From Chloroflexota bacterium (GTDB lineage Bacteria; Chloroflexota; Anaerolineae; Aggregatilineales; Phototrophicaceae): 64,000 nt of DNA. The number at the start of each line of letters is the position of its first letter. Position 1 is the stretch's first letter. Where the stretch lies: contig JAPOOU010000140.1 of the NCBI GenBank assembly GCA_026713245.1, forward strand, positions 1 to 64,000. The letters run 5' to 3'. The position numbers and the translations under genes were made by a program. The notes beneath the pieces are model-generated. The model was given only the letters and a program-made list of their open reading frames with translations. It did not search any database and was not told the origin of the DNA. Shown here piece by piece: positions 6,276-28,344 of the stretch.

Positions 6276-6345
6276 AGAGGAGCGAGATACCGCAGCGCGA
6301 ATGTGATATGCTATGTATGCGAGCCCGAGATCGGGAGCGGTTGAT

Positions 6346-6936
6346 ATGGCGGAAAAGCTAGCGGAACGTCTGCTGGGCGTAGAAGAATTCCTTGAATGGG
6401 AAAGCAAACAACCATTCAGACATGAACTAATAGGCGGCAGGGTCATTGAGATGACAGGTGCAAGCCCATCTCATAATCGCATCAACTTAAACCTTGCCTT
6501 CGCGCTTGAGAATAGACTGGAAAGCCGAGGATGCGAAGTATTTGCCATTGATATTGGCGTATTAGTCGACCTTGAAGGAACCTATGTCTACCCCGACGTC
6601 ATAGTTGTGTGCGGAGAACAGAAATTCCGTACCGGAGCGCTTCAGACCACGCTAGAGAATCCCACGCTTCTGTTCGAGATTCTGTCGCCAACAACAGAGT
6701 CGTTCGACCGCAATCAGAAGTACATGCAGTACCTTCAAATCCCGTCGCTCGAAGGCTATTTCCTCGTCGCGCAAGACCGGCCGCGCATTGAAGCCGCCAT
6801 TCGCGATGGAGATACCTGGCGACATCGTGTTTCTTCCGGCCTGGAGGCCAGTCTGGCCATCTCGTCGCTTGGCTGCGAGCTTCCGCTCAGCGAGGTTTAC
6901 CGGCAGGTGCGCTTCGAGGACGTCGAAGTCGAGTAG
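6346..6936 (+). CDS. Uma2 family endonuclease (DUF820)
   Basis: EFLEWESKQPFRHELIGGRVIEMTGASPSHNRI...YVYPDVIVVCGE. Confidence 0.85.
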   Translation: MAEKLAERLLGVEEFLEWESKQPFRHELIGGRVIEMTGASPSHNRINLNLAFALENRLESRGCEVFAIDIGVLVDLEGTYVYPDVIVVCGEQKFRTGALQTTLENPTLLFEILSPTTESFDRNQKYMQYLQIPSLEGYFLVAQDRPRIEAAIRDGDTWRHRVSSGLEASLAISSLGCELPLSEVYRQVRFEDVEVE

Positions 6937-7261
6937 CTGGTAAAACAGCGCTTTCATCAATTCAACATTGAACGCCAAGAACGCGCGCATCACAAACGCT
7001 ACCGGAACGATCAAAGCAATTGACAGCAGTTCCAAGTTAAATCTCCTCAATTAGCATAACCTTTGCCGTTGTTCTGCCATAGCCCTCAATTGCCGCTTTC
7101 GACGCACTGCAATGAAGGGATCTGGGCGACATCGAGCGGGAGAATTGAGTTGTGAACCAGGGCTGATCCGTGCATAATGCGGGGCACAATAAAATCCCGC
7201 GCGATAGCGTAGCCGAGACATGTTATGCTATGTGTGGATACTAGAATCAGGAAAAAGTGCG

Positions 7262-7855
7262 ATGGCGGAACAACTGGCGGAATACTTGGTCAGCGCGGAT
7301 GATTATCTGGCTTGGGAAAGCCAGCAGCCCACGAAATATGAATTGATTGACAACAGGATATATCCGATGACAGGCGCCAGCCGATCGCACAATCTCATTA
7401 GTACAAAACTGGCGGTAGCTCTAGACAGTGGACTCGCTGTTCGTGGTTGCGAGACTTATACCAGCGACATGCGCGTGCAGGTCGATAAGGCCGGGATCTA
7501 CACCTACCCCGACCTGGTTGTTGTTTGTGGCGAGCCAAGATTCCGCCAATATGTCACGCAAGATACGCTGTTGAATCCAACGCTGATATTCGAAATCTTG
7601 TCGCCATCAACAGAGTTGATCGACCGCAGCCAGAAGCGTGAGCAATATCTGCAAATTCCGTCGCTTCTCGGCTATTTTCTTGTTGCCCAGGACAAGCCAT
7701 TGATCGAAGCATATACGAGACAAGGCGATGAACGGCGGTATCGCGTGGCGTCGGGACTGGACGCCAGGTTGGTTATCCCCGCGCCAGAATATGAGATTCC
7801 GCTCGAATTCATTTACAGCAAAGCGCAGTTTGATCCGGCTGACAATATCAAATAA
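7262..7855 (+). CDS. Uma2 family endonuclease (DUF820), paralog of the preceding gene
   Basis: DDYLAWESQQPTKYELIDNRIYPMTGASRSHNLI...YTYPDLVVVCGE. Confidence 0.85.
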   Translation: MAEQLAEYLVSADDYLAWESQQPTKYELIDNRIYPMTGASRSHNLISTKLAVALDSGLAVRGCETYTSDMRVQVDKAGIYTYPDLVVVCGEPRFRQYVTQDTLLNPTLIFEILSPSTELIDRSQKREQYLQIPSLLGYFLVAQDKPLIEAYTRQGDERRYRVASGLDARLVIPAPEYEIPLEFIYSKAQFDPADNIK

Positions 7856-8754: not shown

Positions 8755-8860
8755 CAGCCGCCCGGCGCGCAATCGGCGATATAGATTTCCGCGCTCTCGC
8801 ACAGTGGCAAGACTTATCCTTGCGCGAGCAAGGCGCTATGTCAAATATAGAGAGAGTAGG
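8755..8860. repeat. Structured intergenic element, copy E (divergent)
   Basis: CCTTGC-GCGA-GCAAGG hairpin at 8818-8833; similar to copy D. Confidence 0.6.
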
Positions 8861-8867
8861 AGATGCA

Positions 8868-9965
8868 GTGGGAATACTGAATGTTGGAATCATCGGAACT
8901 GGCAATATCGCGCCGGCGTATATACGCGGCTGCAAGCCCTTTGAGGTCATCAATGTCGTCGCCTGCGCCGATATTCTGGTCGACCGCGCGGAGGCCTTCG
9001 CCGCGGAGCACGGACTGACCGCGCACAGCGTAGACGATTTGCTCGCCAACGATGAAATCGATATCGTCCTTAACCTAACCATCCCGGCAGCGCATGCCGA
9101 GGTCTCGCTGCAAATCCTCGAGGCGGGCAAACATGCCTACAGCGAAAAGCCGCTGGCGCTCAACCGCGCTGACGGCGCGGCGATTATCAAGGCCGCGGCC
9201 GACAAGGGCCTGCGCATGGGCTGCGCGCCCGATACCTTTCTCGGCGGTGGGGGGCAGACAGCGCGCAAAGCGATCGGCGACGGCAGGATCGGCGCGCCCG
9301 TCGCCGCGACCGCTACCTGGATGTCGCACGGGCATGAGTCCTGGCATCCCAACGCCGGTTTCTATTATCTCAAGGGCGGTGGACCGCTCTTCGATATGGG
9401 ACCGTATTACCTGACGGCGCTGGTCAATTTGATGGGTCCTGTCCTACGCGTCGCCGGGCTGGCGCAAATGACCTTCCCCGAGCGCATCGCGACCAGTGAA
9501 GCGCTAAAGGGCCAGATTCTGCCGGTCGAGGTCAACACGCATGTCGCCGGCACACTCGAATTTGAGACCGGCGCCATTGCAACGGTGATCATGAGCTATG
9601 ATGTCTGGGGGAATCATCTGCCCCACATAGAAGTCCACGGCGCCGACGGATCGCTCAGCGTTCCCGACCCAAACCGATTTGATGGCGAGGTAGCGGCGAT
9701 CAAAGGCGGGACGCGCGATTGGGTCGATATCCCGCTGACGCATACGCCCAATATCGGCCGCGGCGCAGGCGTCGCGGATATGGCCTATGCCATCCAGTCG
9801 GGACGCCCGCACCGCGTCAGCGGCGACCTCGCCTTCCATGTGCTGGACATCATGTGCGCGCTGGAAGAATCGTCGGAGCAGGGTCGTCATGTCGAGATCA
9901 GAAGTACGCTGGATCAGCCGCAGGCGGTCCCTGCAGGCTTGCCCGACGGCGTGCTCGACATGTAG
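8868..9965 (+). CDS. Gfo/Idh/MocA family oxidoreductase
   Basis: GIIGTGNIAPAYIRG Rossmann motif, EKPLALN; GTG at 8868 with upstream GGAG preferred over the track start 8820. Confidence 0.88.
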   Translation: MGILNVGIIGTGNIAPAYIRGCKPFEVINVVACADILVDRAEAFAAEHGLTAHSVDDLLANDEIDIVLNLTIPAAHAEVSLQILEAGKHAYSEKPLALNRADGAAIIKAAADKGLRMGCAPDTFLGGGGQTARKAIGDGRIGAPVAATATWMSHGHESWHPNAGFYYLKGGGPLFDMGPYYLTALVNLMGPVLRVAGLAQMTFPERIATSEALKGQILPVEVNTHVAGTLEFETGAIATVIMSYDVWGNHLPHIEVHGADGSLSVPDPNRFDGEVAAIKGGTRDWVDIPLTHTPNIGRGAGVADMAYAIQSGRPHRVSGDLAFHVLDIMCALEESSEQGRHVEIRSTLDQPQAVPAGLPDGVLDM

Positions 9966-10022
9966 CGCTGATTCACAGCCAAGACACAATACCCATTGAG
10001 TTTACGCGCAAAAGGAGCGAGT

Positions 10023-11120
10023 GTGCGGACATTAAATCTTGGACTGATCGGTACCGGCAATATTGCGCCGGCGTATATCCGTGGCTGCGAGCTTTTTGAC
10101 ATCATCAAGGTAACTGCTTGCGCGGATATCCTGGATGACCGCGCGGGGGCATTCGCCGCCGAACACGGACTGGCCGCATACAGCGTCGACGAGCTGCTGG
10201 CGCGCGATGACATCGACATCGTCGTCAATTTGACCATTCCGGCGGCACATGCCGCAATCTCGCTCCAGATTATCGAAACTGGCAAACACGTCTATAGCGA
10301 AAAGCCCTTGGCTATCAGCCGCGCCGAAGGCGCAGAAGTCATCAAGGCGGCGAAATCGGCCGGGGTTCGTGTCGGCTGCGCGCCGGATACCTTCCTCGGC
10401 GGCGGCCTGCAAACCGCCCGCAAAGTGATTGATGACGGCATTATCGGCCGACCGATTGCCGCGACCGCCGTCTTCATGGCCCATGGACCCGAGGCTTGGC
10501 ATCCGAACCCTGGCATCTTCTATCTCGAGGGCGGCGGGCCTCTCTTCGATATGGGTCCCTATTATCTGACCGCCTTGGTATCCCTGATGGGGCCGGTGGC
10601 GCGCGTGGCCGGCTCGGCGCGCATCACCTTCCCGGAGCGCATCGCCACAAGCGAAACCCTGATGGGGCAGGCGCTTCCGGTCGAGGTCAACACGCATGTC
10701 GCCGGTACGCTCGAATTCGAATGCGGCGCCATCGCCACAGTGATCACCAGCTTCGATATCTGGGGACATCACCTGCCCCCGATCGAGATCCACGGCGAAA
10801 AGGGCTCGCTTTGCGCGCCGGACCCCAACCGATTCGACGGCGATGTGCAGATCACGCCCGGTGGGCAGCGCGAATGGGCCGATGTCCCGCTATCGCATAC
10901 GGCAAATATCGGGCGCGGCGCCGGCGTGGCGGATATGGCCTATGCGATCCAGTCGGGACGTCCGCATCGCGCCAGCGGCGCTCTCGCCTTGCATGTGCTG
11001 GATATCATGTGCGCGCTGGAAGAATCGGCGGCGCTGGGCCAGCATGTCGCCATCCAGAGCAGGCTCGATCAGCCGGCGGCGCTGCCGGCCGGGCTGCCCG
11101 ACGGCGAACTGGATACTTAA
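10023..11120 (+). CDS. Gfo/Idh/MocA family oxidoreductase, tandem paralog
   Basis: GLIGTGNIAPAYIRG...YSEKPLAI; collinear with the preceding protein; GTG start with upstream AGGAG. Confidence 0.88.
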   Translation: MRTLNLGLIGTGNIAPAYIRGCELFDIIKVTACADILDDRAGAFAAEHGLAAYSVDELLARDDIDIVVNLTIPAAHAAISLQIIETGKHVYSEKPLAISRAEGAEVIKAAKSAGVRVGCAPDTFLGGGLQTARKVIDDGIIGRPIAATAVFMAHGPEAWHPNPGIFYLEGGGPLFDMGPYYLTALVSLMGPVARVAGSARITFPERIATSETLMGQALPVEVNTHVAGTLEFECGAIATVITSFDIWGHHLPPIEIHGEKGSLCAPDPNRFDGDVQITPGGQREWADVPLSHTANIGRGAGVADMAYAIQSGRPHRASGALALHVLDIMCALEESAALGQHVAIQSRLDQPAALPAGLPDGELDT

Positions 11121-14182: not shown

Positions 14183-14313
14183 GTCTTGTATCCTCAGTTT
14201 TCATAGTTTTTACCACAGCCGCTCGCCGGCAGCGAATTTGGCGGCATTTGCCTTGGTTGGGGGCGACCGTTTGACCTGAATAGTCCCGCAAAATCCCCCT
14301 AAATCTCTAAAAA

Positions 14314-14355
14314 ATATAGATACAGTATGTATACGGGGGGGGTACCCCCTCCGAG
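14314..14355. repeat. GGGGGTACCCCC / GTATACATACTNTATCTATA element, copy 2 (inverted)
   Basis: Reverse complement matches 22-67. Confidence 0.75.
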
Positions 14356-14640
14356 TTGGCGGGCGAGGCGGCGAATGCTGGCAGTGAGGAAACAGGTTTG
14401 GCGTTCATAGGGGTCAGGGTAGCAGGGATTGGGATGTGGGTGGCGACTGAATGTTCGCGGGTTTTGGATTTTGCCGCAGGTCGCGTAGACACTGACCGCG
14501 GAGGGGCAAAGTTCACAGAGATTTTTTCACCACAAAGGCAAGAGTGAGCGTTGTAAGGCAGCACTTGACAAATGTATACTACAATTGTAAAGAAAGCGGT
14601 CATTCTTGAGAAGTCACTAAGAATATATGGGAAATACTGA

Positions 14641-15165
14641 ATGCAGCCGCTAGATTATCTGAAGATGGAATTCCTGCAAGTTGCGTACGTTAACGCAGTT
14701 GTAGCAAACGCGGGCAAGAGTTGTGATACTCCTAGAAGAGATGCGGGAATAGATATCAGAGTAGTCGACTGGATTCAAAACCCACAAAATCCAAACAGAT
14801 ATGAGGATGGCGGAGTAGTCTTTAACTGTCAGCTTAAAGCTTCTACAAGATGTAGCTTCAAAGATGGCAACCTGATTTTCCCGATGAAAGTCAGGGACTA
14901 CAACAAACTCGTCAACTGGCCAGGGGTAGGCATCAAGATTCTAGTGGCATTTAACATGCCTAAGGACCCCGAGACATGGTTTAGTCAGAACCGCGAGATT
15001 ATGTGCTTGAGGCACTGCTGTTATTGGACAGAACTGACTGGTCAAGCGCAGTCATCAAACAAGCCCGATTCTTCAAAAAGCATAACGATTCCGGAGGATA
15101 GTGTTTTCGACTCTCAGACTGTTTTGGAGTTAATTGAACGGACAAAACAGGACAAATATTCATGA
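14641..15165 (+). CDS. DUF4365-like PD-(D/E)xK nuclease-fold protein
   Basis: AGIDIRVVDW...GGVVFNCQLKAS fits D...QxK core; C-terminal CCYWTELTG. Confidence 0.55.
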   Translation: MQPLDYLKMEFLQVAYVNAVVANAGKSCDTPRRDAGIDIRVVDWIQNPQNPNRYEDGGVVFNCQLKASTRCSFKDGNLIFPMKVRDYNKLVNWPGVGIKILVAFNMPKDPETWFSQNREIMCLRHCCYWTELTGQAQSSNKPDSSKSITIPEDSVFDSQTVLELIERTKQDKYS

Positions 15166-16253
15166 GCACGACATTGGCGAAGGCACGTACATTCCCAACA
15201 CACCAGATTAAATCATATCTTGAGCGTGAAAGATGGTCTCTTATCAATGAAAACGAGCGTTGGATAATTTTTCAGGGCGATCATCCTGTAGACATTGCGC
15301 TGCCCAAGGACATTTCTGCCCCGGATTACCATGTCTACGTTGAGCACGCATTAAAGACGCTTTCGTCGGCAACAGGTAAAACGCCGGACGCAATAGTCAA
15401 TGACATACTGCGTTACGATCGCGACATATTTGATTTGCGCATTACTGAAAACGCTGATCCAAATTCTACTCCTTTACGTTTAGCATTTAAGGCAATCTCT
15501 GGGCTTAAGCAACTTTTTGTTTGTGCTGCCGACTCCGAAGTTAAAGATGCTAAACCCTACTATCCTAGGGATGGGTCAAATCCAAGAAGAATTCTCGACG
15601 AAATTCGCTTTGGTCACACATTTTCTGGCAGCTTTGGGTACAGTGTTGAATCACCGATTAAGACTCAAACAAATATGTTCATGGCTCCGCTTCCACAGCG
15701 CGTCATGGAAAGAATTGTCATAGGATTAGCGACAACAGATAAAGCGACGAAGATGCAGGATGTGACACCGCTTATAGACGGATACGAAACCGGATTTAGC
15801 GCCAATATGTGCGACGCGATTCTCAGCATGTCTGATGACCATAGCATGGCGATTGAGTTCAGTATTAAGTGGTCCAAAAAACGAAAATATGTGCCCGACG
15901 ACTTGAAGGAGATTAACAGTGTTAATATACAACAAAATCATTTTGAATACTTGAAATCAGCAAGTAATTTACTGCGAGACATCCAACCGGAGTTTGTGAC
16001 AGTTGAAGGTACTGTCGCAAGTCTAAAATCACCCAAAGGTCCGCAGAGTGCAGACGACGTAGATCGCAACGTAACCATAAAATGGGAAATGGAAGAAGGG
16101 AAAACCCGTACGATAGTGGTTGCGCTTGAAACAAATGAATACGCGGAAGCTTGGTCAGCGCACTGGGACAATAGATTGGTCTCGGTTAAAGGATACATTC
16201 AAGGTTCTGAGCGACTACTGTCTGAACCGAGAGATTTTAAGGTCATTGGTTGA
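15162..16253 (+). CDS. Uncharacterised protein, translationally coupled to the DUF4365-like gene
   Basis: ATG at 15162 overlaps the upstream TGA (ATGA); 363 aa, no family recognised. Confidence 0.6.
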   Translation: MSTTLAKARTFPTHQIKSYLERERWSLINENERWIIFQGDHPVDIALPKDISAPDYHVYVEHALKTLSSATGKTPDAIVNDILRYDRDIFDLRITENADPNSTPLRLAFKAISGLKQLFVCAADSEVKDAKPYYPRDGSNPRRILDEIRFGHTFSGSFGYSVESPIKTQTNMFMAPLPQRVMERIVIGLATTDKATKMQDVTPLIDGYETGFSANMCDAILSMSDDHSMAIEFSIKWSKKRKYVPDDLKEINSVNIQQNHFEYLKSASNLLRDIQPEFVTVEGTVASLKSPKGPQSADDVDRNVTIKWEMEEGKTRTIVVALETNEYAEAWSAHWDNRLVSVKGYIQGSERLLSEPRDFKVIG

Positions 16254-16266
16254 AGTTGCGGATTCG

Positions 16267-19263
16267 CTATCCACCCTCCACAATCCGCACCTCATTCTCG
16301 CTCAGCCCGTACAGCCGATACACCAACTCGTCGATCTCGCGGTCCGTCCGCTCAATCCGAGCTTGGGCGATACGGAGCGCCTCGCCGGTCAAGTCGGGGA
16401 GTTGCTTGTGCCAGTCCAGCATTTTGTCGACAAGTGCGACCATCTGATCGTGCAGGGCAACATCGGCGGGGTCGTCAAAGTCGATTGTGCGGATGGGGAG
16501 TTGGCCGAAATACTGTTTTGTACAAGTTATCCATCCCCCTCTGAACTTATTGCTTATTTGCCGCAGATTCCAAAACAATAGCTGTGAATTGAGTAAACCG
16601 AGAAGATACTTAGTGGATAAGGTGTCTTGCTTATTCGATAGCGACACGCTGAAACCGCCACTGGCCATAAGGCAATATCTGTTACCCTGATCGGGATACA
16701 AAGAAAAAAGACCTCTATTTGCAAGTAGAGGTACAAGAATCTGCGCATTGTCGTGTAAATTGAGGTTGCGTGGCGCACTAAAAGAATACCACCCTTTGAA
16801 TTGTTTACGTTTCAACAGACGCTCCTTATTGGAAAGCAGGTACGAGTATGTTTTGGGAAATCTGGCTTTAATGACGTCCTCATCCATAAGTGAATAGCCA
16901 TTGCTTGATACCTCATAAGGAAAGATGATTCGTTCGTTGTTGTTCGGACTGAATGAATATCTATTGAAATCAGTCGCATATATTGGTTGCCGGAGCATCT
17001 CGACTTCAATTTCAACCGGTTCATCTTTGCGGGTAAAGAGCTTGCCATCTTTATATTTCAGACACATGACAGTATCAGCACCACTACTTGACCCTCGTGA
17101 CATATCGGCGGGTAAATCAAGCAATCTGCCAGCATTGTCGGACAACTTGGATAGAAAATTGTGTTCGTCCTCAGTTAAAAATATCCACGATTTAGCGCTC
17201 AGAGTACTCTTATTTATGATTCTTGAATCTTGCCTATCGCTTGTCATTTCTTGCGGTTCGGCACTTAGATATCGAAATGTTGGTTCAGAAGTTTTGGATA
17301 GGAACAATAGACAGGTATATGTAGTGGCGTTATCGAACACTTGAGCGTGTCCGAAATCTACAATGTGGTCGATTAGTTGTTCCTCCGCCAAAAGACCCCG
17401 CAGGGCAATGCCATAATCAGTTGCGAAAAACTTGCTTGGTACGATATATCCCAACTTACCTTGTTTATTGAGTAGATTGATTCCTCTTTCAATAAACAGG
17501 ACATAAATGTCGTAATTGCCTTTGGACGCAGCAATGTAATTCTTCTTGTAGTAAGGCACCGTGTCGGGCGCGGTCTCTTTCATGGTCTGAATGCGAATAT
17601 AAGGCGGATTGCCGATGACGGCGTCGAAGCCGCCGGCATCTATAATCGCGGGGAAGCCGTCTTCGCTATGCCAATCGAAGAACTTAATCCGCAATCGCTC
17701 CTCTTCGGTGAAAAGCGCGGGCTGCTTGCCGTCATAAAAGTCGCTGCCGATGAGGGAATTGCCCCATTTGATGTTGCCGCTGAGGTCGGGCAGGATGCGT
17801 CCGCCGGCGCTGAACATGAGGGTCTGGCGGCCGGTGGCGTCGTTTTCCTTCTCCAGCATCTTGAGCAGCAGGGAGAGCTTGCTGACTTCGACGGCGTTCT
17901 GGTCGAGATCGACGCCGTAGATGTTGTCCAGCAGGATGCGGCGTTTTTCAGCGGTCGTGAGGATCATGCCCTCGCCGACGATTTCGCGGACGCGATTGCG
18001 GTACTGCTTGGGACGGGCCCGGTAATAATCCAGGTGCCAATCGAGCAGGTACTGATAGGCGCCGGTGAGGAAGGAGCCGCTGCCGCAGGCGGGATCGAGG
18101 ATGCGCAGTTTTTCCGCTTCTGCCGGCGTCGCCCCTTTGAGCAATGCGCCGACAGTATTTTCCACGATGTAGTCGACGATATAAGCGGGGGTGTAATAGA
18201 CGCCGCCGGCTTTGCGCACTTCGGGTTTTTCTTCGACGCGCACCGCGCCGCCCGCGCTTAATTCGATGACTTTGCCGAGGAACTGCTCGTAGACCTGGCC
18301 GAGAATATCGGCGGGCAGCACGGAAAATTCGTAGGGGCTGAAGGGAAAATACAGATTTTTGATGATGCGGCGCAGCGGCTCGTCGGGGATGTGGATCTTG
18401 AGCGAATCGAGGTCGGGATCGCTGACGCGCTCTTCTTTGCCGAAGTGGAACAGGCCGGAATTGTATTTGTCATCGGCTTCGTTGAAGAGGATTTTCAGTT
18501 CTTCATAGACTTCTTTGCCCTCGCCTGCGGCGCTGCGCAGGCGTCCGTAGGCTTCGATATCGCGGTCTTCGGCGATGCGCAGGAAGACGATGCGGTCAAT
18601 CGCGCGCTGGACGAGCAGATTAAGCTGGCGTTGGCTGAGGTCGCGGTTATGCAGGGCGATGTCCTTCGCCAGTAGCTCGCGCCAGTTTTCCATCTCGCGC
18701 AGGAAGGCTTGGTCGACGCTGAAGAAGCCGCGGATTCGCTCGCCTTCAATCCACTCGCGCAGCGCGCCTCCGGCGACGGCTTCGCGGCTGAAACGCGACT
18801 CAAGCTCGTCCCATTTGTCGATGTAATCGCCATATTCATAATAACGCAGGCGGGCCGTTGCTGCGGGATCGCTGCGCTGGGGCTGGATGCGGCAATCATA
18901 GACGCTGAATTCTTCGAAATCGGTCAAGACGCTGACGGGCGTATTGCCCGACCAGCCGTAGCGGCGCAGTTGAAAAGCCGGGATGGGGTTCCGCTCCAGG
19001 TTGACATGCGGCATTTTGGTCTCGACGAAGAAATGCGTCGTGTGGCCGATGCGGAAGCCGTAATCCGGGCGTTTGGGTTTTTTAATACCGCCTTCGTCCA
19101 CCATGACGCTGACTTCGAGGCCGACTTGCCGGTTGTCAACGACATCCCAACCCAGGGCGGTAAACAATTTGTCAACGAACTGCGTACGCAATTCCGTTTC
19201 GCTGTCTGGCTTGCGTTCCTCAAACTGTTTAACCAGCTTTCCGACTTCCTCTGGCGCGGTCAT
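16267..19263 (-). CDS. Type IIG (Eco57I-like) restriction-modification enzyme
   Basis: N-terminal nuclease motif PDYGF...FFVETK; LDPACGSGSFLTGAY and IGNPPYIRIQ N6-adenine MTase motifs; C-terminal TaqI-like specificity region. Confidence 0.9.
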   Translation of the reverse strand: MTAPEEVGKLVKQFEERKPDSETELRTQFVDKLFTALGWDVVDNRQVGLEVSVMVDEGGIKKPKRPDYGFRIGHTTHFFVETKMPHVNLERNPIPAFQLRRYGWSGNTPVSVLTDFEEFSVYDCRIQPQRSDPAATARLRYYEYGDYIDKWDELESRFSREAVAGGALREWIEGERIRGFFSVDQAFLREMENWRELLAKDIALHNRDLSQRQLNLLVQRAIDRIVFLRIAEDRDIEAYGRLRSAAGEGKEVYEELKILFNEADDKYNSGLFHFGKEERVSDPDLDSLKIHIPDEPLRRIIKNLYFPFSPYEFSVLPADILGQVYEQFLGKVIELSAGGAVRVEEKPEVRKAGGVYYTPAYIVDYIVENTVGALLKGATPAEAEKLRILDPACGSGSFLTGAYQYLLDWHLDYYRARPKQYRNRVREIVGEGMILTTAEKRRILLDNIYGVDLDQNAVEVSKLSLLLKMLEKENDATGRQTLMFSAGGRILPDLSGNIKWGNSLIGSDFYDGKQPALFTEEERLRIKFFDWHSEDGFPAIIDAGGFDAVIGNPPYIRIQTMKETAPDTVPYYKKNYIAASKGNYDIYVLFIERGINLLNKQGKLGYIVPSKFFATDYGIALRGLLAEEQLIDHIVDFGHAQVFDNATTYTCLLFLSKTSEPTFRYLSAEPQEMTSDRQDSRIINKSTLSAKSWIFLTEDEHNFLSKLSDNAGRLLDLPADMSRGSSSGADTVMCLKYKDGKLFTRKDEPVEIEVEMLRQPIYATDFNRYSFSPNNNERIIFPYEVSSNGYSLMDEDVIKARFPKTYSYLLSNKERLLKRKQFKGWYSFSAPRNLNLHDNAQILVPLLANRGLFSLYPDQGNRYCLMASGGFSVSLSNKQDTLSTKYLLGLLNSQLLFWNLRQISNKFRGGWITCTKQYFGQLPIRTIDFDDPADVALHDQMVALVDKMLDWHKQLPDLTGEALRIAQARIERTDREIDELVYRLYGLSENEVRIVEGG

Positions 19264-19269
19264 AGCGCC

Positions 19270-26621: not shown

Positions 26622-27215
26622 CTAAAGACTATCTCTCCATAAAGCCAATTGGCTACCCTTGCCAATTGGCTTTCCAATTAGATGGCGAAGGTCACACACT
26701 GCCCCGAAGACCGCAAATACCTGTTCAAAGAACTCATACTGCGAGCCCCAATAAATCATCGCACAAGCCATTGGAGCTCCCTTGCCACCAGTCTTTCCGT
26801 CCACGAGGAATTTCAGACGCGTATCGTATAAAAATGTGATAGCGGTGGCGACACCAAAGACGCAATCCTTCCAGTGCTTAGTATTTGTGGCAACAGGCAC
26901 TAGAGCAAGCACCTCTGCACCATGCACACTATGGGCCTCCGCACATCTATTAAGCCAGTGGTAGATGGTGGTTCCCCTAAGTCTGTCTCTGCCATATGGA
27001 GGATTTACGAAGACAGACGGATAATCCCATGATTCCAATAAACCGTCAAGTTCAGGGAGAGAATACTCTATCGTTGCACCTACGATGGAGTGGAGATTAG
27101 AACACGGGTCTAGAGCAATTGTTCCGCCGAAGAATTCTCGTATTGCAGACACGTACTTTGGTGGAGTACACCAGTGTTGACTTAAGGATTCGGCGTTGTT
27201 TCGTCCAGCTGTCAT
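26622..27215 (-). CDS. DNA N6-adenine methyltransferase (phage Dam-like)
   Basis: QHWCTPPKYVSAIREFFGGTIALDPCSN...VFVNPPYGRD. Confidence 0.82.
   Translation of the reverse strand: MTAGRNNAESLSQHWCTPPKYVSAIREFFGGTIALDPCSNLHSIVGATIEYSLPELDGLLESWDYPSVFVNPPYGRDRLRGTTIYHWLNRCAEAHSVHGAEVLALVPVATNTKHWKDCVFGVATAITFLYDTRLKFLVDGKTGGKGAPMACAMIYWGSQYEFFEQVFAVFGAVCDLRHLIGKPIGKGSQLALWRDSL
26641..26673. terminator. Long inverted repeat at a convergent gene junction, lying inside the 3' end of the methyltransferase CDS
   Basis: AAAGCCAATTGGC-TACCCTT-GCCAATTGGCTTT, 13-bp perfect stem. Confidence 0.6.
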
Positions 27216-27228
27216 TTTTTGGTTTTCT

Positions 27229-28344
27229 TCAACGTGGTTTAGACGTCAAAGTTTCCAAGTCCCTTTTCAATGCTGTTATAGACATACTTTTTGGAGCAAT
27301 AACGTTGAACCATGAGTCGATTTCGGAACTGTGACGTCCAAAAAAGTTTCGAAGAGATTCATCTGCGGAAACGTCCATATTGACTTTGGTGAATCTGTTC
27401 TTGCCCGACTTACCTGAGTAGCTGTCCAAGAACGCCTTTTTGGCCGGTTCTAACTCTGGACCCGGGTCAACCAAGATTTTCTCGATAAATTGGTGTAATC
27501 CTTGGTCAGTTAGAAACAGCAACCAATCATAAGATTGAGCCAGTACGTGCAGTTCTTTATTGTAATTGTCGGACGTAAACCAGTTTCCATGATTGCTCAC
27601 GACCCCTACGGTGAGCATGAAACCGGGAAACTTTGATAACGATTCTGCGCGTATTACTTCACGCAGCATGCTGTGATAAGGCGCCATACGAAAGTTGCCG
27701 TCGGCTTCCTCAATAATACCTTGAACCTGACCATTTCGACTTCTTACCTTCTGAAGGGACGAAACAGATTGGGCAACGTATGCACCCTGTTTCGCTTTCT
27801 CGATAGTCTGAGGACCTTTCTTCATTCCTTCCTCTACACCGACTCGCTTGCACTCGAATATTGCAAATGGGTGACGGTGAAGTTCTGCGATAGTGAGATT
27901 ACAAGAAGTCTGGCTGAGATTATCAACATGGGCAACAATCGGGCCTGCCTGCGTCTCGACGAGCACAGCGGAATTGCGCTTAATGTTGTTGGTAGTAACG
28001 ATCTGATTTGACTTCAAACGAAGGTCTTTGAGCGAACTCAATTGCTTTCGAATCTTTGCAGGTGTGATTGGACGCGAATATGGCTCCATTACGGTATTAT
28101 GCAGCGATCGGATGGGATGGAGGGAAAATTCTACGTTATGCACAATTTCCAAATTGGCAAACTCCGGTAGTCTGCGCTCAATGACTATATGATCACGAAG
28201 ATCCCACGAACACAGCAAGTAATACGTCACAATTTCAATGAGAGTGCCTAAGGCTCGTCCTGCTGCCTTCTTTCGATCTTGTCGATTATGGAATACTTGA
28301 TTGGCAAGATCGTTTTGAAGCGCGTCAATTGACTTATAGCCCAC
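27229..28344 (-). CDS. Putative Type II restriction endonuclease
   Basis: Adjacent to the methyltransferase, same strand; VDN...HPFAIFECKRVG resembles a D...ExK core. Confidence 0.6.
   Translation of the reverse strand: MGYKSIDALQNDLANQVFHNRQDRKKAAGRALGTLIEIVTYYLLCSWDLRDHIVIERRLPEFANLEIVHNVEFSLHPIRSLHNTVMEPYSRPITPAKIRKQLSSLKDLRLKSNQIVTTNNIKRNSAVLVETQAGPIVAHVDNLSQTSCNLTIAELHRHPFAIFECKRVGVEEGMKKGPQTIEKAKQGAYVAQSVSSLQKVRSRNGQVQGIIEEADGNFRMAPYHSMLREVIRAESLSKFPGFMLTVGVVSNHGNWFTSDNYNKELHVLAQSYDWLLFLTDQGLHQFIEKILVDPGPELEPAKKAFLDSYSGKSGKNRFTKVNMDVSADESLRNFFGRHSSEIDSWFNVIAPKSMSITALKRDLETLTSKPR

What the first reader, a model, noticed from the sequence alone, without database searches (positions are those of the whole stretch)
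14641..16253. Candidate two-gene defence system: DUF4365-like nuclease coupled to an unknown protein
The first gene carries a plausible PD-(D/E)xK core (D-x-R...QLK). The second starts within its stop codon (ATGA at 15162), indicating translational coupling. The second protein (363 aa) matches no family I recognise. The pair is AT-richer than its surroundings and ends 13 bp from a convergent Type IIG R-M gene. This is the best candidate here for an undescribed two-component system.
Basis: partly seen in the sequence, partly recalled or inferred. Interest (0 to 1): 0.62.

Follow-up and report, generated by a model that had tools for sequence, protein, structure and literature searches.

The report
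Nuclease plus modular partner defence pair
The two overlapping genes are a member of PDC-M02, an unvalidated candidate anti-phage system already listed in the PADLOC database; the evidence suggests a DNA-cutting nuclease controlled by a modular three-part partner protein, and this copy is a natural hybrid whose halves come from two different relatives.

Summary
In detail: gene A (14641-15165, 174 aa) and gene B (15162-16253, 363 aa) overlap by ATGA, are AT-rich, and end 13 bp from a convergent type IIG gene. The pair is not undescribed: PADLOC-DB names it PDC-M02A/B (E 4e-34, 7e-77). I found no published function.

A is a PD-(D/E)xK nuclease whose best structural matches are the DREN domains of SPARDA; its invariant D38/K66 and 98%-conserved Q64 align with the DREN catalytic residues D41, Q60, K62. 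There is no Argonaute or APAZ. B is confidently modelled (pLDDT 92): N-module, middle domain with a GHTxxGSF motif, C-terminal OB fold. Middle+OB is remotely related to DUF6575 proteins, the toxin of the validated system PD-T4-10 (hhalign 86%).

A sits directly before B in about 122 of 128 loci from many phyla and archaea, and the two co-diverge (r=0.72). Nostocales plasmids carry a 'mini-B' lacking the middle domain. The window pair is recombinant: A plus B residues 1-~72 from one lineage, the rest from another. Broken A with intact B occurs in five loci; the reverse was not seen.

Most likely: A is a DNase effector, B its regulator/sensor. No phage assay exists.

The parts
14641..15165 (+). 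Gene A, 174 aa: PDC-M02A, DUF4365 / DREN-type PD-(D/E)xK nuclease
   Evidence: Pfam PF14280; PADLOC PDC-M02A 4.2e-34; AF2 pLDDT 95.9, top 13 PDB fold hits all SPARDA chains, E down to 2e-7
14752..14754 (+). Codon of D38, aligned with NbaSPARDA DREN catalytic D41
   Evidence: invariant in 114 homologues; alignment; PMC12205087
14830..14838 (+). Codons of Q64-L-K66, aligned with DREN Q60-x-K62
   Evidence: Q64 98%, K66 100% conserved; alignment; PMC12205087
15162..15165 (+). ATGA overlap of A stop and B start
   Evidence: exact 4-bp overlap in 87 of 119 A-B loci
15162..16253 (+). Gene B, 363 aa: PDC-M02B, predicted regulator/sensor of A
   Evidence: PADLOC PDC-M02B 7.1e-77; no Pfam or NCBIfam family above cut-off; AF2 pLDDT 92.3, pTM 0.84
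15162..15419 (+). B N-module (residues 1-86)
   Evidence: AF2 secondary structure; kept in mini-B
15375..15380 (+). Inferred recombination junction, B residues about 72/73 (70-80 depending on the parents used)
   Evidence: max chi-square 141 against 24.7 in 5000 permutations
15420..15986 (+). B middle domain (about residues 87-275) with the GHTxxGSF motif (151-158 in the window); absent from mini-B, shared with DUF6575 proteins
15987..16250 (+). B C-terminal OB fold (about residues 276-363)
   Evidence: local Foldseek matches to SilF, SsbB, Rim1 and other SSBs, prob 0.9-1.0, E 0.007-0.1
16267..19263 (-). Type IIG restriction-modification enzyme: neighbour in the same genomic slot, not part of the two-gene unit
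   Evidence: PADLOC REase_MTase_IIG 9.4e-244; presence/absence in relatives

Best explanation
A-B is a two-gene defence system (PDC-M02). A is a small DREN-type DNase kept in check, and deployed, by B. B is built from an N-module that travels with A, a middle domain that is optional, and an OB fold that probably binds nucleic acid. When B meets its trigger (most likely phage or plasmid DNA, or an aberrant single-stranded nucleic acid), A is activated or assembled and cuts DNA, destroying the invader or killing/arresting the cell. In SPARDA the same nuclease type is switched on by a guide-loaded short Argonaute; here B would take that place. Shown: conserved two-gene unit, nuclease fold and catalytic residues, three-part B, OB-like C-terminus, modular recombination, decay pattern. 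Inferred: that B is the trigger sensor, that A and B bind each other, that the substrate is DNA, that the outcome is anti-phage.
For: PADLOC names both genes as one candidate system. A before B in about 122 of 128 B loci from Chloroflexota, Pseudomonadota, Bacillota, Actinomycetota, Cyanobacteria, Spirochaetota, Planctomycetota and archaea, with overlaps; A-based viral search: 9 of 9 have B. Divergence of A and B correlated, r=0.72, permutation maximum 0.16, n=93. No third gene recurs: among 131 immediate neighbours no PADLOC family matched more than 2. A fold = SPARDA DREN, profile matches DREN proteins by sequence, and D38/Q64/K66 align with D41/Q60/K62, shown to matter for catalysis (PMC12205087). 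OB-like C-terminus of B. Carried on plasmids, temperate phage LE1, prophages. Broken A beside intact B in L021, L040, L030, L124, L155; no intact A beside a broken B, as expected if A is the harmful part.
Against: No phage-challenge data for any PDC-M02 were found (no paper in the library holds the name). OB hits are local and weak (best E 0.007), and OB folds can bind proteins. The decay count is five against none, loci were mostly found through B, and two cases could be assembly errors. Complex formation was not modelled. Family-wide, A distances follow the middle domain (partial r 0.45) rather than the N-module (0.07), so N is not proven to be A's docking part.
Confidence: 0.6

Rival explanations
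1. Plain toxin-antitoxin or addiction module: A is a DNase toxin, B its antitoxin, and the pair mainly stabilises plasmids, prophages and genomic islands rather than sensing phage.
For: Overlapping genes, frequent on plasmids and prophages, broken A with intact B but not the reverse.
Against: B is a large conserved three-part protein, with a middle domain not required for a minimal partner (mini-B), more than a simple antitoxin needs; it shares a module with the defence protein PD-T4-10B; in the window's genus the pair sits in a chromosomal slot alternating with a type IIG R-M gene.
Confidence: 0.18
2. PD-T4-10-like arrangement: B is the toxin and A the antitoxin, as shown for DUF6575 PD-T4-10B and PD-T4-10A.
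For: B residues about 75-289 are remotely homologous to DUF6575 proteins (hhalign 86%; Foldseek 7e-7); PD-T4-10B is toxic and neutralised by the upstream overlapping gene PD-T4-10A (PMC9519451).
Against: A keeps an invariant nuclease active site, unexpected in a pure antitoxin. B is found intact where A is destroyed. The DUF6575 N-domain is missing from B and A does not match PD-T4-10_A. It is not known which part of PD-T4-10B is toxic.
Confidence: 0.12
3. Housekeeping DNA repair or recombination pair: a Holliday-junction-resolvase-like nuclease with an SSB-like partner.
For: Weaker fold hits to Hjc/Hje resolvases (E 0.005-0.05) and OB hits to SSB.
Against: Patchy within one genus (6 of 13 genomes including the window's), highly divergent compared with the flanking gene (35-56% for B in the genus against mostly 75-89% for the best flanking-gene copies), on mobile elements, and closer to SPARDA nucleases than to resolvases.
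Confidence: 0.06

Closest known systems
PDC-M02 (PADLOC-DB 2.0.0 candidate)
   Same: Both genes hit its A and B models; same order
   Different: Nothing defining; unvalidated, and I found no published description of mechanism or structure
SPARDA (DREN-APAZ + short pAgo)
   Same: Nuclease fold and catalytic residues of A
   Different: No APAZ fusion, no Argonaute; B takes the partner position
PD-T4-10 (Vassallo 2022, PMC9519451)
   Same: Two overlapping genes; middle + OB part of B remotely homologous to DUF6575 PD-T4-10B
   Different: Different N-domain of B, different upstream partner (nuclease in place of the PD-T4-10A antitoxin)
PDC-M63
   Same: PDC-M63B matches the C-terminal half of the same DUF6575 proteins
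   Different: Direct comparison with the window protein not made; partner not examined

Membership tests
PDC-M02 | M02A homologue | tested here: met
   E 4.2e-34
PDC-M02 | M02B homologue directly downstream | tested here: met
   E 7.1e-77; 4-bp overlap
PDC-M02 | Anti-phage activity | not testable with these tools
   needs bench work; no paper naming PDC-M02 found
SPARDA | DREN nuclease domain with D/Q/K site | tested here: met
SPARDA | APAZ domain fused to the nuclease | tested here: not met
   A is 174 aa, all of it aligned to the DREN end; no other Pfam hit
SPARDA | Adjacent short pAgo | tested here: not met
   B and the flanking genes tested have no Piwi match
PD-T4-10 | DUF6575 N-domain in B | tested here: not met
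   no Pfam hit in the window protein, nor DUF6575 among the 25 most-matched families of 83 homologues
PD-T4-10 | PD-T4-10_A partner | tested here: not met
   gene A matches only PDC-M02A models
PD-T4-10 | Middle + OB module of the toxin | tested here: met
   hhalign 86%, E 4.7e-6; control A6 vs A10 0.2%; remote homology, toxin part not mapped
Type II toxin-antitoxin | One protein toxic alone, neutralised by the other | not testable with these tools
   decay pattern suggests A is the harmful one

The most novel reading that the evidence does not exclude
PDC-M02 and PD-T4-10 belong to one superfamily of modular two-gene immune systems: a shared middle + OB module is joined to interchangeable N-modules, each with its own upstream partner (a DREN nuclease in M02, a non-nuclease in PD-T4-10). 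New pairs arise by recombination at the N-module boundary, and a minimal form (mini-B, Nostocales plasmids) lacks the middle domain. DREN nucleases would then be controlled without any Argonaute.
Probability: 0.35. Interest if true: 0.7.

Novelty: new member of a known kind. Interest (0 to 1): 0.48.

Why it matters
PDC-M02 is widespread across bacteria and archaea, yet I found no proposed mechanism. Linking its nuclease to SPARDA's DREN and its partner to the validated PD-T4-10 toxin turns an anonymous candidate into something testable, and the natural recombinants mark a domain boundary at which the partner protein can be split in experiments.

Tried and rejected
Genome scan with the window B protein alone found nothing; an alignment spanning the whole family was too diverse; a closer subset worked. 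Whole-chain Foldseek of B against PDB gave no hit below 1e-3. Apparent long A fusions (L061, L085, L117 and others) look like artefacts of taking the first start codon upstream, not real fusions; no natural A-B fusion was found. The IIG gene as a third component was rejected. A-specific co-divergence of the N-module over the whole family was tested and not found. No conserved promoter or operator was evident in the upstream regions.

Full report
Observation. Both ORFs exist as described: 14641-15165 and 15162-16253, overlapping ATGA, 44.2% GC in a 57.4% GC window, 13 bp from a convergent type IIG gene.

Identity. Pfam gives DUF4365 for A and nothing for B; NCBIfam gives nothing above cut-off for either. 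PADLOC-DB gives PDC-M02A (4.2e-34) and PDC-M02B (7.1e-77). All 83 B homologues of the main alignment match PDC-M02B models. A 2026 paper describes PADLOC's PDCs as candidates found by guilt-by-embedding, mostly awaiting experimental validation (PMC12988326); no paper in the library holds the name PDC-M02.

Conservation of the pair. Homologues came from 400 phylum genomes (9 positive), plasmids (16 records), phages (Leptospira LE1 and Mycobacterium prophages), 80 genome loci and 32 viral loci. A precedes B in 119 of 128 by the first count and in three more after re-inspection (L057, L096, L103); the rest are contig edges or decayed copies. 87 of 119 have exactly a 4-bp overlap. Some loci are near-duplicates, so these are counts of records, not independent events. 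A and B divergence correlate (r=0.72, n=93, permutation maximum 0.16). Searching from A gives B in 9 of 9 viral loci. No PADLOC family recurs more than twice among 131 immediate neighbours, so the unit is two genes.

Gene A. AF2 model pLDDT 95.9. The 13 PDB hits below E 1e-3 are all SPARDA chains (TM about 0.5-0.6 over 162-174 columns), with Holliday junction resolvases behind. By sequence the family profile finds DUF4365 proteins of SPARDA (9qbq E 6e-4; 9jsb 0.095), and D38, Q64, K66 align with NbaSPARDA D41, Q60, K62. There D41A and Q60A abolished and K62A impaired collateral nuclease activity (PMC12205087). The fold and active site are therefore well supported; activity of this protein is inferred.

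Gene B. AF2 model pLDDT 92.3, pTM 0.84. Three parts: N-module 1-86, middle about 87-275 with a conserved GHTxxGSF motif, and an OB fold about 276-363. The OB part finds SilF and SSB-like proteins at marginal E-values with high Foldseek probability. Against viral models, besides the LE1 homologue, a DUF6575 protein is found at 7e-7. DUF6575 proteins match PD-T4-10_B, the toxin of an abortive-infection system with an overlapping upstream antitoxin gene (PMC9519451). Profile comparison of B with DUF6575 rose from 23% to 62% to 86% as sequences were added or exchanged; an unrelated control gave 0.2%. The DUF6575 N-domain and the partner gene differ from M02.

Mini-B. In Nostocales plasmids an M02A nuclease is followed, with the same 4-bp overlap in L151-L154, by a 175-181 aa protein made of the N-module and the OB fold, the middle domain missing. 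I did not find this form described. The middle domain is therefore not required in every working pair, assuming these pairs work.

Recombination. In the window's genus M02B is patchy (five of the 12 other species sampled) and only 35-56% identical, whereas the flanking ADP-ribosylglycohydrolase has 75-89% identical best copies in most of them. The slot between an IlvD-like dehydratase and that gene carries A-B + IIG (window), A-B with a IIG remnant (L024), A-B alone (L025, G688, G679), A-B with the glycohydrolase not found beside it (G685), IIG alone (G682), or neither (G689 contig 17). Gene A of the window is 70% and 60% identical to G684 and G679, but B residues 76 onward match L024-L026 (53-72%) rather than those (25-35%); the switch is at B residue about 72/73 (max chi-square 141 against 24.7 in 5000 permutations). 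L186 (G684) shows the same junction (B75-79), and L029 against L027/L187 has 91-93% identical middle+OB with 38-39% identical A. The exchange unit is thus A plus N-module. Family-wide distances do not single out the N-module as A's partner (partial r 0.07, against 0.45 for the middle domain), so docking by the N-module stays a hypothesis.

Decay. Broken A with intact B: L021 (IS6), L040 (internal deletion), L030 (frameshift), L124 (insertion), L155 (frameshift, mini-B). Intact A with broken B: none seen; contig edges excluded. Numbers are small, most loci were found through B, and L030 in particular could be an assembly error.

Mechanism. Best reading: A is a DREN-type DNase effector and B its regulator and sensor. 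Rivals: a simple DNase toxin-antitoxin pair; a PD-T4-10-like arrangement with B as toxin; a repair pair.

Noticed in passing
L151-L155 (Nostoc, Calothrix and Tolypothrix plasmids): Mini-M02B of 175-181 aa: N-module plus OB fold, middle domain absent, behind an M02A nuclease (broken in L155).
   Followed up: partly
window 14183-19269: Chromosomal slot between an IlvD-like dehydratase and an ADP-ribosylglycohydrolase holds different defence genes (A-B, type IIG, both or neither) in related genomes.
   Followed up: partly
L136, L138, L140, L141, L142, L148: DUF6575 (PD-T4-10_B-like) genes with a small upstream partner of about 137-190 aa in Chloroflexota, cyanobacteria, Rhodococcus and Rahnella.
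   Followed up: partly
window 26622-28344 (-): Phage-type DNA N6-adenine methyltransferase-like gene next to a 371-aa gene with a weak type II restriction enzyme match; possible second R-M pair in an AT-rich patch.
   Followed up: no
window 6313-7855: Two tandem genes of 207 and 211 aa that look like paralogues (Uma2-like by eye, not searched).
   Followed up: no
window 8820-11120: Two adjacent Gfo/Idh-like genes (381 and 374 aa) that match the same genes in relatives L024 and L025; likely tandem paralogues.
   Followed up: no
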